Under the pieces are notes generated by a model, which ran no database searches, was not told where the DNA came from, and saw only the letters and a list, made by a program, of their open reading frames with translations. A stretch of DNA of 64,000 bases from Streptomyces sp. NBC_01591 (GTDB lineage: Bacteria > Actinomycetota > Actinomycetes > Streptomycetales > Streptomycetaceae). Shown here piece after piece: positions 41,885-47,663 of this stretch. The position numbers were made by a program, and so were the translations under genes. The DNA lies in the NCBI RefSeq assembly GCF_035918155.1, contig NZ_CP109327.1:3038001-3102000 (forward strand), given 5' to 3'. Within the stretch, counting starts at the first letter, position 1, and the number at the start of each line of letters is the position of its first letter.

Positions 41885-42634
41885 TCACGTGTTCCCGGTC
41901 GGGCCCTCCAGAGGTGGGCCCAGGGCCTGCCCCGGCACCGGGCCGAAGGAGGCGCTCGCGAGCACGGTGCCGTGTGCGTCGGTCAGACGTACGCCGGTGA
42001 CCGGCGACGTGCCGGCCAGGTAGGGCCCGCCCCAGGAGCCGTAGCCGTCGTCGTCGAGGGTGAAGGTACCGGCCTTGACGGTGGTGCCGTCGGCCCGCTG
42101 GAGCAGGCAGTGGACGGTGCCGGAGTGCCCGTCGGCGTCCACCGCCATGTACAGCCAGGGCGAGGCTCCGGCATAGAGGTAGACCTGCCCGAACGAGTGG
42201 TTTCCGTTGGTGAGTTGGGCGGCGAGCAGCTGCGGCTGCACAGAGGAGGCGACGGGCGCGACCGGGGCCGGGCTCCCGGTGTACGCGCCGAGCACCCAGC
42301 CGCCGCCGCCGAGCGCCAGGCCCGCTGCCGCCGCCGCGGCGGCGAGGGCGATCCGCCGCCACCTCGGGTGCCGGACGGCCGGCCGCCGCGCCGGGGCGAG
42401 CCCGAGCCGCTCGATCACCCGGTCCTCGAAGCCGACCGGCGGTTCGCTGCCCGGTAGGAGATCCAGCAGCGCGTCCGAGGCGGCGGCCAGCTCGTGGACG
42501 TGTTCGCGGCAGGCGGGGCAGTGCTCCAGGTGGTCCATCGCCCCGGCCCGTTCCCTGGCGGGCAGCACGCCGAGCGCCAGTTCCGCGCCGATCTCCCGGA
42601 GCTGCTCGCAGCTCCGCCCGCCGTTGTCAGTCAT
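41885..42634 (-). CDS. Zinc-finger anti-sigma factor (RskA-like)
   Basis: A 249-residue single-pass membrane protein. The N-terminal ZAS motif HLEHCPAC (His35-x3-Cys39-x2-Cys42) binds the sigma factor. One transmembrane helix (about 97-119, IALAAAAAAAGLALGGGGWVLGA) leads to an extracytoplasmic RskA-type domain ending GPPLEGPTGNT. Its ATG overlaps the sigma stop by 8 bases, so the pair is stoichiometrically coupled. It likely holds the ECF sigma at the membrane until regulated proteolysis. Confidence 0.92.
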   Translation of the reverse strand: MTDNGGRSCEQLREIGAELALGVLPARERAGAMDHLEHCPACREHVHELAAASDALLDLLPGSEPPVGFEDRVIERLGLAPARRPAVRHPRWRRIALAAAAAAAGLALGGGGWVLGAYTGSPAPVAPVASSVQPQLLAAQLTNGNHSFGQVYLYAGASPWLYMAVDADGHSGTVHCLLQRADGTTVKAGTFTLDDDGYGSWGGPYLAGTSPVTGVRLTDAHGTVLASASFGPVPGQALGPPLEGPTGNT

Positions 42635-43208
42635 GGTCCACCTGCCTGGTCGCGAGGGATGCCCGGACCTTGCCCATGGCTGCCCTTATCCGGGTCTTGG
42701 CGGTACCGAGCGGTATCTGCTCGAAGTCGGCGACCTGCTGGGCCGTCATCCCGTAGATACCGGCCATCACCAGAGCACGTGCCTGTTCCCTCGGCAGCTT
42801 GCCGACCGCACGGCGCAGGTCCGCCGCGGCTTCGGCGGAGAGTGCGTGCCGCTCCGGTGTGTCGGCGACGGTCTCCATCATGTTCTCCAGGTCCGCGGGG
42901 TCGACCGGAGTGGCCTTGCGGGCACGTACGGCGTCGATCGCGAGGTTGTGTGCGATGGCCGACAGCCAGGTGGGCACCGATCCCCGGCGCGGGTCGTAGA
43001 CCTGGGCGTGCCGGCAGGCGCGCTCGAAGGTCTGCTGGGCGATGTCCTCGGCGAGCTGGATGTCGCCGACCACGGCGACAGCCACGCCGAAGACCCGATG
43101 CTGGAACCGCCGTACGAAGGCCACGGCGATCTCGGGATCGCCGGTCATGAGCCCGGCCAGCAGCGCTTCGTCGGGCACCCGCTCCAGGGGGATGCCAATC
43201 CTGCGCAT
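42627..43208 (-). CDS. ECF RNA polymerase sigma factor
   Basis: A 193-residue ECF sigma factor with region 2 (AEDIAQQTFERACRHAQVYDPRRGSVPTWLSAIAHNLAIDAVR) and region 4 (LPREQARALVMAGIYGMTAQQVADFEQIPLGTAKTRIRAAM). The anti-sigma partner follows with an 8-base overlap; the pair resembles SigK/RskA. An AAGGAG lies only one base before the ATG at 43208, which is too close for a normal start, so a downstream GTG (in LERVPDE) may be used instead. A hairpin (GCGCCCGC at 43225-43232 with GCGGGCGC at 43247-43254) is in the leader. Confidence 0.92.
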   Translation of the reverse strand: MRRIGIPLERVPDEALLAGLMTGDPEIAVAFVRRFQHRVFGVAVAVVGDIQLAEDIAQQTFERACRHAQVYDPRRGSVPTWLSAIAHNLAIDAVRARKATPVDPADLENMMETVADTPERHALSAEAAADLRRAVGKLPREQARALVMAGIYGMTAQQVADFEQIPLGTAKTRIRAAMGKVRASLATRQVDHD

Positions 43209-43389
43209 ACTCCTTACGTAACACGCGCCCGCGGGGATTGCCTGCTGCGGGCGCCCCCGGGACCTCTCGTTCGGATCGGGCCAGGCGGGCGGGCCGATCA
43301 TGAACCCTCGGGCCTGCGGCGCCGTAGGTAGTGAAGGCGCGCCCTGCCGAACACGGCGGCGCAGGCCGCCTCGGACCCTTGGAGTCGTG

Positions 43390-43833
43390 ATGACGTCCCC
43401 CACGACACTCATGACATTGCGCGGAACCGGCGCGATCTGCGCCCTGGCGAGCGCGGTGCTCCATCTCCTGCTGGTCCCCTCACACCTGACGGAGATGCCG
43501 TACATCGGCGTCCTGTTCCTGATCGGCGGCGTGGTGCTGCTCGCCGTCGCCGCGGGCCTCGTCCTCCAGCAGCGGCCGTTCGGCGCCTGGCTGATCGGGG
43601 CGGCCACCAGCATCGGCATGATCGTCGGATTCCTGCTGTCGCGGACCGTCGGACTGCCGGGCTACCGCGAAACGGGCTGGGAGCCGCCGTACGGCGTCCT
43701 GTGCCTGATCGCGGAAGTCGCCTTCGTGCTCGCCTTCGTGGTGTGGCTGAAGGAGAGCGGCGCCCCGCGGGCCGCGGAGCCGCTGCCCCGCGAAGCCGTT
43801 CACGCGAAGTCCTCGTCGGCTCGGTCGCACTGA
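43390..43833 (+). CDS. Small four-helix membrane protein
   Basis: A 147-residue protein with about four hydrophobic helices, for example GAICALASAVLHLLLVPSHL, FLIGGVVLLAVAAGLVL and LIAEVAFVLAFVVWL. A basic Ser/Arg-rich tail ends it. A GGAG site precedes ATG 43390. It is divergent from the sigma gene across 180 bases, so it could be a target of that sigma factor. I do not recognise a named family. Confidence 0.75.
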   Translation: MTSPTTLMTLRGTGAICALASAVLHLLLVPSHLTEMPYIGVLFLIGGVVLLAVAAGLVLQQRPFGAWLIGAATSIGMIVGFLLSRTVGLPGYRETGWEPPYGVLCLIAEVAFVLAFVVWLKESGAPRAAEPLPREAVHAKSSSARSH

Positions 43834-43935
43834 CCGAGGACGGGGCCCGCGTCCGGGCAAGATTCTCCCGGGGACGGCAATCCCACGAGCGCCCTGGCGC
43901 GTATTCCGTCCAGAAGCCTCTCAGGAGGGAAGCTC

Positions 43936-44079
43936 ATGGCGATCTTCAGGCATCTGACCCCCGCCAAACACCGTCACGAAAAGAGGGACATGACGTCGGG
44001 GCGCTCCGACAGCACCGGAAGGCGCCGTCGCCGTCGTCGCCGTAACACCCACCACGATCACCACGGTCACCACTGGTGA
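43936..44079 (+). CDS. Arg/His-rich 47-residue peptide
   Basis: A 47-codon frame with an ideal AGGAGG ribosome-binding site (43923-43928) seven bases before the ATG. The N-terminal half reads MAIFRHLTPAKHRHEKRD. A run of eight Arg follows (residues 29-36), then NTHHDHHGHHW-stop. Nine His and thirteen Arg/Lys make it extremely basic, and the HHDHHGHH tail is a plausible metal or acid-responsive site. No signal peptide or Gly-Gly leader is seen. It lies 67 bases before an ABC exporter gene in the same direction. The family is unknown; an antimicrobial or nucleic-acid/phosphate-binding peptide, or a regulatory leader peptide, are possibilities. Confidence 0.6.
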   Translation: MAIFRHLTPAKHRHEKRDMTSGRSDSTGRRRRRRRRNTHHDHHGHHW

Positions 44080-44146
44080 CCATCCAGAACGGCTGAGCGG
44101 GCCCTGCTTCTTGGTCCGCTCGGCCGGCGATGTGAGGAACGCTTCC

Positions 44147-46009
44147 ATGAGGCGTGTCCCGTGGCATCTCGTACGACGGCTGCTGTCGGTGGCGGACGAT
44201 CCCGACGCGGTCGTCGCCGCCGCGCCGGCGGTCGCCCCGCGCGAGGTGTTCCGGCGCTTCTGGCCCTATACGCGCGGCGGCCGGCGCTGGCTCGTTCCGA
44301 TCCTCGCCCTCAGCATGATCGGTCCCGTCGTCGACGCGGCCGAGATCTGGCTCTTCAAGGTCGTGGTGGACGAGGTGCTCGTCCCGCGCGATCTGCGCCC
44401 CTTCGCCTGGATCGCCCTGGCGTACACCGCGCTCTTCGTCTGCTCCGGCGTGCTGGATTTCGCCGACGACGTGATGTCCACCTGGGTGAGCGAGCGCTTC
44501 CTGCTGGCTCTTCGGTCGGATGTGTTCCGGCATGTCCAGGGCCTCTCGCTCGGGTTCTTCGAGCGGCGCCGGCTGGGGGACGTGCTGTCGCGCATCACGG
44601 GCGATGTCGACGCGGTCGAGACGTTCCTGCTCTCGGGGGTGGCGAACGGCCTCTACTACGTGATCCGGCTGGGCGTCTTCCTGGGTCTGCTGTTCTACCT
44701 GCGATGGGACCTGACCCTCCTCGCGCTCGTCATCGTGCCGCTCTTCTGGTGCGCGGCCCGGCGCTTCTCCCGGCTGATCAAGGCCGCTTCGCGGGAGCGG
44801 CGGCGGCGCAGCGGCTCGATCAGCGCGATCGCCGAGGAGTCGCTCGGCAACGTCGCGCTGGTGCAGGCGTACAACCGGCAGGAGACGGAGGGGTGCCGGT
44901 TCGAGCGCGAGAGCGTGGGCAAGTTCCGCGCGGCGATGGCCTCGGCACGCATCCATGCGGTGTACGGCCCGGTCGTCGAGGTCATCGAACTGGCCGGCGC
45001 GCTGGCCGTCATGGGTCTGGGCACCTGGAAGCTGGCGCAGGGGCAGCTCACACTGGGCGGGCTGCTGGTCTTCCTCGCGCTGCTGAGCAACCTCTACAGC
45101 CCGATCCGCGATCTGTCCCGTCTCACCAATACGTTCTACGCGGCATCCGCCTCCGCCGAGCGGATCATCGAGCTGCTAGACCAGCACCCGCAGGTCGTCG
45201 AGGCCGCCGGAGCCCGGCGGATCAGGCGTGCCCGGGGCGACGTGGAGTTCCGCGGCGTCTCCTTCCGCTATCCGGGTACGTCCCGGTGGGCGCTCACGGA
45301 CGTGTCGTTCCACGTGACACCCGGCACGACGCTGGCGCTGGTCGGCGCGAGCGGCGCCGGCAAGTCCACGGTCGGAAAGCTGCAACTGCGCTTCTACGAC
45401 CCGGACCGGGGCGCGATCCTGCTCGACGGCACGGACCTCAGGGACCTGCGGCTGTCCGAGCTGCGCGAGAACGTCGCGGTGGTGTTGCAGGAGACGCTCG
45501 TCCTGCACGGCACCGTGCGGGAGAACATCGCCTACGGCCGCCCGGACGCGACGGAGGCGGACATCGTCGCGGCGGCCCGCGCCGCCGACGCCCATGACTT
45601 CATCCGGCTGCTCCCCCAGGGTTACGACACCGTGGTGGGACAGCGCGGCCGGACGCTGTCCGGCGGGCAGGCCCAGCGCCTGGCGATCGCCCGCGCGATG
45701 ATCAGGGACGCGCCCGTGCTGCTCCTGGACGAACCGACCACGGGTCTGGACGCCCGGTCGGGCCGCCGGATCATGGAACCGCTGCGCCGGCTCATGGCGG
45801 GGCGGACCACCGTCGTCATCTCCCACAATCTGCTCACCGTCCGCGACGCCACGTCCACCGTGGTGCTGGACCACGGCCGGGTCGTCGAACGCGGCACGCA
45901 CGAGGATCTGCTCCTGCGCGGCGGAACGTACGCCCGGCTGCACCGGCTGAACACGGAGACCGACCGGGAGCCCACCGGCTCGCCGCCCCTGCGGAAGGTC
46001 CTGTCATGA
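44147..46009 (+). CDS. ABC exporter (fused membrane and ATPase domains)
   Basis: A 620-residue type-IV ABC exporter half-transporter (MsbA/LmrA-like), probably a homodimer. A six-helix membrane domain spans residues 45-330. The ATPase has Walker A GASGAGKST (400-408), signature LSGGQ (504-508) and Walker B VLLLDEPTTGLD (524-535), with a switch His in ISHNLLTV. No peptidase C39 domain is present. The ATG at 44147 has GAGGAA about 8 bases upstream. It follows the Arg/His peptide gene and overlaps the kinase-like gene by four bases, suggesting one functional unit. The exported substrate is unknown. Confidence 0.93.
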   Translation: MRRVPWHLVRRLLSVADDPDAVVAAAPAVAPREVFRRFWPYTRGGRRWLVPILALSMIGPVVDAAEIWLFKVVVDEVLVPRDLRPFAWIALAYTALFVCSGVLDFADDVMSTWVSERFLLALRSDVFRHVQGLSLGFFERRRLGDVLSRITGDVDAVETFLLSGVANGLYYVIRLGVFLGLLFYLRWDLTLLALVIVPLFWCAARRFSRLIKAASRERRRRSGSISAIAEESLGNVALVQAYNRQETEGCRFERESVGKFRAAMASARIHAVYGPVVEVIELAGALAVMGLGTWKLAQGQLTLGGLLVFLALLSNLYSPIRDLSRLTNTFYAASASAERIIELLDQHPQVVEAAGARRIRRARGDVEFRGVSFRYPGTSRWALTDVSFHVTPGTTLALVGASGAGKSTVGKLQLRFYDPDRGAILLDGTDLRDLRLSELRENVAVVLQETLVLHGTVRENIAYGRPDATEADIVAAARAADAHDFIRLLPQGYDTVVGQRGRTLSGGQAQRLAIARAMIRDAPVLLLDEPTTGLDARSGRRIMEPLRRLMAGRTTVVISHNLLTVRDATSTVVLDHGRVVERGTHEDLLLRGGTYARLHRLNTETDREPTGSPPLRKVLS

Positions 46010-46923
46010 GCCGCCGCACCACCGCTCCGCCGACTCCGCCCCTCGCCCCCGGGACGAGACCCGCGCCGGGGTACGAGGTCCTGGCCCATCTGGCCCGGAC
46101 GGGATGGCTCGACCTCTACGACGCGTGGAGCGAGGAGCGGGACTGCCGGTGCGTCGTGAAGGTGCTGCGCCCCGACCGCCGCCACGAGCAGCGGCTGCGC
46201 GACCGGCTGCGGCGGGAGGGCCACTGGCTGCGGGCCTTCAGTCATCCGCACCTGGTCCGCGCGTACGAGACCTTCGACTCGCCCGAGCCGATCGTCGTGC
46301 TGGAGACGCTGACCGGCGAAACGCTGTCGCACCTCGTCGACCGGTTGCCCCGCCGGGCGTCCGCCCAGGACGTGGCGCTCCTCGGCGTGCACCTGTGTTC
46401 CGCGGTCCACTACCTCCACGGTCAGGGCCTGCTGCACCTGGACCTCAAGCCGTCCAACGTGGTGGTCGACCGCGGGCTCGCCAAGGTGCTCGACCTCAGC
46501 GTGGCCCGACCGCCCGGCATCGCCCCTCCGGGCATCGGCACCTTCTGCTACCTGGCTCCCGAACAGGCACGGGGCGGGCCGTTGTCGGCCGCGGCCGATG
46601 TGTGGGGCATCGGCGTCACGCTGTACGAAGTCGCCACCGGCGACGCACCGTTCGACAGCGGCGAGACCATGGACGGCGCCGACGGAACGGACGACACGGG
46701 CGGGACCGACGACTCGGGCAGCGGTGTGGACTGGTACCCGCAACTGGAGGAGACCGCGCCGCCGATCGGCTCCCGCCGACGCCTCCCCCGTGACCTGGCC
46801 ACGGCCATCGACACCTGTCTCCGGCCCGACCCGGCCGCCAGGCCCGCGATTCCCGAACTCGCCGACGCCCTCGATGCGGCAGTGCCCCGGCGGGGACGCC
46901 GGCGCCCCGGAGACACGTCCTAG
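46006..46923 (+). CDS. Serine/threonine kinase-like protein
   Basis: A 305-residue soluble protein with a Hanks-type kinase fold: Lys52 (VVKVLRP), Glu71 (REGHWL), catalytic loop HLDLKPSN (Asp146, Asn151) and LAPEQ (184-188). Variations are a degenerate Gly-rich loop ([10 protein letters not shown]), HLD in place of HRD, and DLS (163-165) for DFG. An acidic Asp/Gly/Thr-rich insertion occupies about residues 220-242. There is no PASTA domain or membrane helix. ATGA overlap couples it to the ABC exporter. Key catalytic residues remain, so it may be active; a role in regulating the exporter is inferred. Confidence 0.88.
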
Positions 46924-46970
46924 GTCAAAGGGCTGATCACTTCGCCACCCTTCCTGCTGTTAGCCTGCTC

Positions 46971-46987
46971 TTGCATATTGCTTGCAA
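46971..46987. promoter_or_regulatory. Nur (nickel uptake regulator) box of sodF
   Basis: TTGCAT-N5-TTGCAA matches the published Streptomyces Nur box tTGCaa-N5-ttGCAA at all but one position. It lies 35 bases before the sodF ATG. Nur with Ni2+ represses sodF in Streptomyces, so this gene should be expressed under nickel limitation. Confidence 0.8.
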
Positions 46988-47021
46988 TAACAACAGGACA
47001 GCAGCTGGAGGGTTCGACCAC

Positions 47022-47663
47022 ATGGCCACGTACACGCTTCCGGAACTCCCGTACGACTACGCGGCGCTCGAACCGGTCATCAATCCGCAGATCATCGAGC
47101 TCCACCACGACAAGCACCACGCCGCCTATGTGAAGGGTGCGAACGACACCCTGGAGCAGCTGGCGGAGGCGCGTGACAAGGAGGCCTGGGGAGCGATCAA
47201 CGGGCTCCAGAAGAGCCTCGCGTTCCACCTCTCCGGCCACATCCTGCACTCGATCTACTGGCACAACATGACCGGCGACGGCGGCGGCGAGCCGCTCGCG
47301 GCGGACGGCGTCGGTGACCTGGCGGAAGCGATCACGGAGTCGTTCGGCTCGTTCGCCGGTTTCAAGTCCCAGCTGACGAAGGCCGCGGCCACCACGCAGG
47401 GCTCCGGCTGGGGCGTCCTGGCGTACGAGCCGGTCAGCGACAAGCTGATCGTCGAGCAGGTCTACGACCACCAGGGCAATGTCGGCCAGGGCTCCGTCCC
47501 GGTCCTGGTCTTCGACGCCTGGGAGCACGCCTTCTACCTCCAGTACAAGAACCAGAAGGTCGACTTCATCGAGGCGATGTGGGCCGTCGTCAACTGGCAG
47601 GACGTGGCGAAGCGTTACGCGGCCGCCAAGGAGCGCGCCGACGTGCTGCTGCTCGCTCCCTGA
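47022..47663 (+). CDS. sodF: Iron superoxide dismutase
   Basis: Fe-type superoxide dismutase of 213 residues. Metal ligands are found in [16 protein letters not shown] (first His), [11 protein letters not shown] (second His) and [13 protein letters not shown] (Asp and His). The [12 protein letters not shown] loop is typical of Streptomyces SodF. A GGAGGG site lies about 9 bases upstream of the ATG. The Nur box directly in the promoter indicates that it substitutes for the nickel enzyme SodN when nickel is scarce. Confidence 0.96.

What the first reader, a model, noticed from the sequence alone, without database searches (positions are those of the whole stretch)
43936..46923. Arg8/His-rich micro-peptide, ABC exporter and altered kinase as a possible new system
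A 47-codon gene with an ideal ribosome-binding site encodes eight consecutive Arg and a HHDHHGHH-Trp tail. It is followed by an ABC exporter and, with a 4-base overlap, a soluble kinase-like protein. I know of no described system with this trio. Seen: the frames, the AGGAGG site and the gene order. Inferred: that the peptide is exported, or senses metal or phosphate, and that the kinase controls the exporter.
Basis: partly seen in the sequence, partly recalled or inferred. Interest (0 to 1): 0.75.

Follow-up and report, generated by a model that had tools for sequence, protein, structure and literature searches.

The report
Phosphopeptide, exporter and kinase operon
Soil bacteria of the Streptomyces group carry an apparently undescribed, switchable gene set that seems to make a tiny repetitive arginine- or histidine-rich peptide, attach phosphate to it with a dedicated kinase, and pump it out of the cell.

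Summary
The 47-codon frame is a real gene: an orthologous small ORF precedes the exporter in 83 of 84 non-redundant loci, with a conserved N-terminus (MAIFxxLxPA) and a variable low-complexity tail. Two unnoticed parts belong to the unit: an ECF sigma factor and a zinc-finger-like anti-sigma factor (41885-43208, minus). One promoter motif with 16-base spacing lies before the peptide in 76 of 82 loci and before the linked sigma gene in 41 of 45.

The kinase keeps its catalytic residues but changes state about ten times on the exporter tree. In 8 of 9 contrasts, kinase-less loci have less Ser/Thr in the peptide tail, and in 8 of 9 more Asp/Glu. In distant families 15 kinase-linked tails have 6-16 Ser/Thr; 27 of 28 without it have 0-2.

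Best explanation: the kinase phosphorylates the peptide and the ABC protein exports it. Phosphorylation, export and role are inferred, not shown. The logic resembles kinase-tailored lasso peptides, but it is no member. My literature searches found no description.

The parts
43879..43904 (+). Predicted ECF-type promoter of the peptide operon: AATCC (43879-43883), 16 bases, CGTAT (43900-43904)
   Evidence: Motif found before the peptide in 76 of 82 loci; 0.17 expected per set in shuffles. Not mapped experimentally.
43936..44079 (+). 47-aa low-complexity peptide (Arg8, His-rich tail), SD AGGAGG at 43923-43928
   Evidence: Orthologous ORF in 83 of 84 loci; pN/pS below 1 only in this frame
44090..44126 (+). 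Hairpin between peptide stop and exporter (14-bp stem, 9-base loop), no T-run
   Evidence: Fold; a perfect stem of 9 bp or more in 68 of 82 loci against 12.7% of shuffles
44147..46009 (+). Type IV ABC exporter (membrane domain fused to ATPase), MsbA-like, no C39 peptidase match
   Evidence: Pfam and NCBIfam matches; MsbA, P-glycoprotein and other ABCB chains among solved relatives
46006..46923 (+). Soluble Hanks-type Ser/Thr kinase, 305 aa, HLD and DLS motifs
   Evidence: Pkinase 113.4 bits; catalytic residues kept, no membrane-type stretch
42627..43208 (-). ECF sigma factor; start placed at the ATG 43208, five bases after its predicted -10 element
   Evidence: Sigma70_r2 and r4_2 over cut-off; linked in 30 of 43 loci of 14 kb or more
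41885..42634 (-). Membrane anti-sigma factor with HxxxCxxC head and outer beta domain
   Evidence: zf-HC2 18.5 bits, just under its cut-off 22.2; NCBIfam antisigma 77 bits, cut-off 100; H35, C39, C42 invariant in 38 rows; model
43214..43239 (-). Predicted sigma-gene promoter, same motif: AATCC (43239-43235), 16 bases, CGTAA (43218-43214)
   Evidence: Motif before the sigma gene in 41 of 45 loci, all with spacing 16
43390..43833 (+). Small membrane protein, optional neighbour
   Evidence: Homologue near the module in 7 distinct other loci (L037, L038, L054, L055, L059, L063, L144); no family match

Best explanation
A signal releases the ECF sigma factor from its membrane anti-sigma factor; the sigma factor transcribes itself and the peptide-exporter-kinase operon. 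The peptide gene, followed by a hairpin that should keep peptide message in excess, is translated at high level. The dedicated Hanks-type kinase phosphorylates Ser/Thr in the disordered tail. The ABC exporter, probably recognising the conserved N-terminus, moves the peptide out. The phosphates supply negative charge that lineages without the kinase partly replace with Asp/Glu. Shown by sequence: conservation, linkage, shared promoter, intact kinase residues, coupling of the kinase with tail Ser/Thr. Inferred: expression, phosphorylation, export, the signal, and the role outside the cell (my guess: a charge-balanced surface or metal-binding coat peptide).
For: Peptide before the exporter in 83 of 84 loci. 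Motif before peptide 76 of 82 and before sigma 41 of 45; spacing 16 in 76 of 77 peptide matches (that tally includes L143) and in 41 of 41 sigma matches. The six loci without the motif have no linked sigma gene. Kinase residues intact. Tail Ser/Thr: at least one in 69 of 69 kinase-bearing loci, none in 8 of 13 kinase-less loci with a peptide. Tree: ten changes of kinase state; independent pairs at 'two or more Ser/Thr' go the same way 6-7 times of 9, never the other way, p 0.016-0.031. Density falls in 8 of 9 contrasts, Wilcoxon p 0.0078; Asp/Glu rises in 8 of 9, p 0.0078; their sum is level, p 0.57. Outside the set that suggested the idea: 15 kinase-linked distant peptides with 6-16 tail Ser/Thr, 28 without kinase with 0-2 except one with 6 (kinase absence rechecked). 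Control: of 28 ABC_membrane places in the own genome only the two of this exporter clade have such an ORF, judged by eye.
Against: No expression, phosphorylation or export data. At the threshold 'any Ser/Thr' only 4 of 9 pairs differ (p 0.125). L124 has no kinase yet keeps tail Ser/Thr (3, against 3 in L060), L071 keeps 2 after what looks like a recent deletion, and L165 has 6 without a kinase. The Asp/Glu rise was noticed, not predicted, and several residue classes were tested. 13 of 43 long loci have no linked sigma gene. L065 holds a partial kinase match without the exporter nearby. No export signal is known; the anti-sigma zinc finger scores below cut-off.
Confidence: 0.62

Rival explanations
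1. The peptide stays inside as a small regulatory subunit of the exporter: its conserved N-terminus docks on the transporter, and phosphorylation of the tail switches transport of some other substrate.
For: Short conserved N-terminus and strict pairing with one exporter clade; explains the kinase-tail coupling equally well.
Against: Free variation of length and composition of the tail, in-frame repeats and a hairpin suggesting excess peptide over exporter fit a cargo better. None of this excludes a subunit.
Confidence: 0.2
2. The kinase acts mainly on the exporter or on the sigma/anti-sigma pair; tail Ser/Thr loss is incidental drift.
For: Overlapping exporter and kinase genes suggest close coupling.
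Against: Linked sigma gene kept in 13 of 14 kinase-less loci and exporter kept in 14 of 14; Ser/Thr falls in the tail but not in the first 11 residues; repeated in 8 of 9 contrasts and in distant families.
Confidence: 0.1
3. The small frame is a translated leader: ribosome stalling on Arg and His runs controls the hairpin and thus exporter expression, as in attenuation.
For: Runs of Arg and His codons followed by a strong hairpin.
Against: Tails are not tied to one amino acid; N-terminal residues rather than codons are conserved; tail Ser/Thr follows the kinase, which needs the peptide itself; few hairpins have a T-run.
Confidence: 0.04

Closest known systems
Kinase-tailored lasso peptides (paeninodin/PadeK, pseudomycoidin/PsmK; passages of review PMC9266682)
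   Same: A small peptide gene beside a kinase that phosphorylates Ser of the precursor
   Different: There the kinase has a His-Lys-Asp-Asp motif, acts on a C-terminal Ser, and the peptide is matured by B and C proteins; here the kinase is Hanks-type, the tail is repetitive, and no lasso maturation genes were seen among the nine window proteins scanned
Class III/IV lanthipeptide synthetases (kinase domain)
   Same: The kinase scores 94 bits against LanL, over the kinase part; ABC export of a small peptide
   Different: Far under the LanL cut-off of 650; the protein is a kinase domain alone, and 76 of 83 peptides have no Cys
MsbA-like / ABCB exporters
   Same: Best NCBIfam model is MsbA (479 bits), solved relatives are MsbA and P-glycoprotein type
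   Different: Under the MsbA cut-off of 602; a gene for a low-complexity peptide precedes it
SigK/RskA-type ECF sigma and anti-sigma pairs
   Same: SigK model is among the best NCBIfam hits (96.5 bits); membrane anti-sigma; sigK is autoregulated in M. tuberculosis (passages of PMC7509140)
   Different: Under the SigK cut-off of 226; the predicted target here is the peptide operon
Protamines and SR proteins with SR-protein kinases (recalled, no call)
   Same: Arg-rich, Ser-containing short disordered tails with a dedicated kinase
   Different: Eukaryotic nuclear proteins; no homology claimed; many tails here are His/Asp/Gly-rich

Membership tests
Active Hanks-type Ser/Thr kinase | Pkinase match over the curated cut-off | tested here: met
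   113.4 bits against 31.7
Active Hanks-type Ser/Thr kinase | Beta-3 Lys, alpha-C Glu, catalytic Asp and Asn, metal-binding Asp | tested here: met
   K52, E71, D146, N151, D163 in 69 of 69 and 20 of 20 rows
Active Hanks-type Ser/Thr kinase | Phosphotransfer activity | not testable with these tools
   Needs a biochemical assay
Type IV ABC exporter | ABC_membrane and ABC_tran in one chain | tested here: met
   151 and 114.5 bits, both over cut-off
C39-type bacteriocin exporter | N-terminal C39 peptidase domain | tested here: not met
   No such Pfam match in the exporter
Class III/IV lanthipeptide synthetase | Full-length LanKC or LanL model over cut-off | tested here: not met
   29 and 94 bits against 575 and 650
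Lasso peptide cluster with kinase | Lasso protease B and cyclase C genes beside the precursor | tested here: inconclusive
   None among nine window proteins scanned between 41885 and 49938; the rest of the window was not scanned
ECF sigma factor | Sigma70 regions 2 and 4 only | tested here: met
   Sigma70_r2 60.9 and Sigma70_r4_2 34.6 bits, both over cut-off; TIGR02937 65 against 42.9
SigK equivalent | NCBIfam SigK model over cut-off | tested here: not met
   96.5 against 226
Zinc-binding anti-sigma (ZAS) | HxxxCxxC motif | tested here: met
   H35, C39, C42 invariant in 38 rows; but zf-HC2 18.5 bits is under the cut-off 22.2
Zinc-binding anti-sigma (ZAS) | Zinc binding and release of sigma | not testable with these tools
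   Needs biochemistry

The most novel reading that the evidence does not exclude
Actinobacteria possess a whole undescribed class of exported low-complexity peptides, each bound to one clade of ABC exporters, with interchangeable tails (Arg/Ser, His/Asp/Gly, Gly/Tyr/Arg, Pro/Lys). In one large branch a dedicated kinase phosphorylates the tail before export under an ECF sigma switch, and phosphate and Asp/Glu are evolutionary substitutes: a bacterial counterpart of protamine/SR-type phospho-control, moved outside the cell.
Probability: 0.42. Interest if true: 0.9.

Novelty: new variant of a known kind. Interest (0 to 1): 0.8.

Why it matters
If true, it defines a new type of bacterial secreted phosphopeptide and gives an orphan group of Hanks-type kinases a dedicated substrate encoded two genes away. 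About ten natural changes of kinase state form a ready series for asking what phosphorylation does to a disordered charged peptide. The peptides found by search carry, where a name is shown, 'hypothetical' or 'uncharacterized' names. The central claim can be tested with one kinase and one 47-residue peptide.

Tried and rejected
Superoxide dismutase (47022-47663) as part of the system: rejected; among the loci searched it lies beside the module only in the close relatives L035, L038 and L071. Lanthipeptide and C39 bacteriocin membership: not met; lasso: not supported. Attenuation leader: unlikely. Metal binding by His as the general function: rejected as general, because tails without His are common. 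Trait 'any Ser/Thr in the tail': only 4 of 9 pairs informative, not significant. Fold search with the anti-sigma model: no match at E 0.001 or better. Literature: seven searches ran in a licence-limited library; no listed title or abstract start describes this unit. I read passages of PMC7509140 and PMC9266682 and of the other papers saw listings only. A SigK promoter consensus that I recall resembles the motif here but was not found in the passages seen. Peptide not found: L136, L200, L210, L212. L200's stretch ends at the exporter, so its kinase state is unknown. L143 was dropped because its contig ends just after the exporter. Dropped from the pN/pS count: L034, L058, L143. The nine contrasts were picked by me from the tree; L136, having no peptide, is not among them. 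One query (from L205) was overlong, running out of frame through the exporter; it was left out. One search used a strict score limit for the kinase; one search repeated the check for all 28 distant kinase-less loci with a loose limit and found none (L229 has only 790 bases downstream).

Full report
Observation. The window lies in a 10.25 Mb genome whose nearest named relatives at this locus are Streptomyces. The frames, AGGAGG, Arg8 and His-rich tail, gene order and 4-base overlap are as described, and the exporter and kinase assignments are firm.

Conservation. A scan of named genomes with the kinase gave 33 loci. Thirty of them (L035-L064) have the exporter next to the kinase; the other three are L066, cut by its contig end, L065, a partial kinase match without the exporter nearby, and L067, a remote kinase of another phylum. 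All 34 loci with the exporter at that point (these 30 plus L031-L034, L031 being a second copy of L045) showed a 40-65 aa candidate ORF just before it. The exception, L136, also has a damaged kinase. In sampled genomes the close exporter orthologue occurs in 35 of 391 of the order (830 bits or more) and 42 of 392 of the genus (650 bits or more; my counts from the tables, own genome included).

Peptide anatomy. In a 34-row alignment Met1 and Pro9 are invariant and Leu7 and Ala10 nearly so. The tail changes length and composition freely. Codons 2-11 show pN/pS 0.21 in 13 close relatives and 0.50 over 80 rows; shifted frames give 1.15 and 1.45.

Regulation. An ECF sigma gene is linked in 30 of 43 loci of 14 kb or more, upstream and divergent in the window, downstream in either orientation elsewhere, 5 kb away in L037. 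The motif [AC]ATC[CT]-N(13-18)-CGTA[TCA] lies before the peptide in 76 of 82 loci and before the sigma gene in 41 of 45; 0.17 per set is expected in shuffles. The spacing is 16 in 76 of 77 and 41 of 41 matches. The six loci without the motif have no linked sigma gene. In the window the sigma -10 element ends five bases before the ATG, suggesting a leaderless message (inferred). The anti-sigma factor has an invariant HxxxCxxC in 38 rows, and its model shows a helical head, a low-confidence stretch holding a likely membrane helix, and an outer beta domain.

Hairpin. A perfect stem of at least 9 bp lies within 90 bases after the peptide stop in 68 of 82 loci against 12.7% of shuffled stretches; only 2 of 82 have four or more T in the next eight bases. 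A partial terminator or stabiliser that keeps peptide message in excess would look like this; that role is inferred.

Kinase and peptide. The catalytic residues are kept in 69 of 69 orthologues and in 20 distant rows from 17 loci; the best solved relative is PknB. Of 83 usable loci 14 lack an intact kinase; L071, L136 and L155 keep remnants. The exporter tree (quick IQ-TREE, L034 as outgroup) needs ten changes, nine of them forced by starred branches. Tail Ser/Thr (residue 12 to end): at least one in 69 of 69 and at least two in 68 of 69 kinase-bearing loci; none in 8 of 13 kinase-less loci with a peptide. The phylogenetic comparisons are weaker than this raw contrast and are the ones to rely on: at 'one or more', 4 of 9 pairs differ (p 0.125); at 'two or more', 6-7 of 9 (p 0.016-0.031); none goes the other way. 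As density, 8 of 9 contrasts fall (Wilcoxon p 0.0078); L124 against L060 is marginally higher. Asp/Glu rises in 8 of 9 (p 0.0078), and Ser+Thr+Asp+Glu stays level (p 0.57). Lys/Arg, His, Gly, Tyr and Asn did not shift (p 0.73 or more), though acid minus base did (p 0.039). The acidic rise was noticed, not predicted, and should be retested. In the first 11 residues Ser/Thr fell in only 1 of 9 contrasts.

Wider family. Small ORFs of the same sort precede more distant exporters (about 40-60% identical): found in 44 of 47 distinct distant loci (chosen by eye as low-complexity ORFs with a ribosome-binding site). Those without the kinase are mostly Pro/Lys-rich (MSFKKLAPLPKPK...) or Gly/Tyr/Arg-rich. 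Kinase-linked ones are Ser/Thr-rich, for example [46 protein letters not shown], whose named relatives are Nocardioides hypothetical proteins. In a table of 43, the 15 kinase-linked peptides have 6-16 tail Ser/Thr and the 28 others 0-2, except L165 with 6; densities do not overlap, and kinase absence was rechecked for all 28. L218, found, is kinase-linked and fits. L210 is kinase-linked but I found no peptide. These loci are not phylogenetically independent of one another; several are congeners.

Control. Of 28 ABC_membrane places in the own genome (four are copies of one element, several are partners in tandem exporters), only two have such an ORF upstream, both of this exporter clade. This was judged by eye: entropy alone would not separate the window's peptide (3.43 bits) from some chance ORFs there (3.15 and up).

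Interpretation. The simplest reading is a switched operon that makes, phosphorylates and exports a disordered charged peptide. Phosphorylation of the peptide rests on coupled evolution; export rests on exporter class, gene order and hairpin; the external role is open. Coat, metal-binding or antimicrobial roles would each fit some tails.

Novelty. The parts are known kinds; the peptide matches no Pfam or NCBIfam family, and I found no description in seven searches of a licence-limited library. I rate it a new variant of the peptide-tailoring-export kind, with a real chance that it is a class of its own.

Noticed in passing
46970-46995: TTGCAT-N5-TTGCAA just upstream of the Fe/Mn superoxide dismutase gene resembles the Nur (nickel regulator) box as I recall it; no call tests this.
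   Followed up: no
L161 (own genome G000:C1, about 2.897 Mb): A second exporter of the same wider clade, 46% identical, is preceded by a Gly/Tyr/Arg-repeat peptide MKVRSIFDHGGHGGGGYGGRGGYGG... and has no kinase.
   Followed up: partly
L103, L169, L204: Two tandem, related Lys/Pro/Ala-rich peptide genes before one exporter.
   Followed up: no
L208: Two small Trp/Asp/Cys- and Tyr/Gly-rich ORFs before an exporter of the wider clade in another family of the class.
   Followed up: no
41885-42634: The outer domain of the anti-sigma model gives weak Foldseek matches to Cu,Zn superoxide dismutase barrels (E 0.02 or worse, TM to target up to 0.65); below significance.
   Followed up: partly
L233, L234 (plasmids NZ_AP026074.1, NZ_CP121683.1): The kinase also lies on linear Streptomyces plasmids; on NZ_CP121683.1 the match is in two pieces under two annotated ORFs.
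   Followed up: no
L155, L071, L136: Kinase genes with internal deletions that leave both ends, apparently recent losses.
   Followed up: yes
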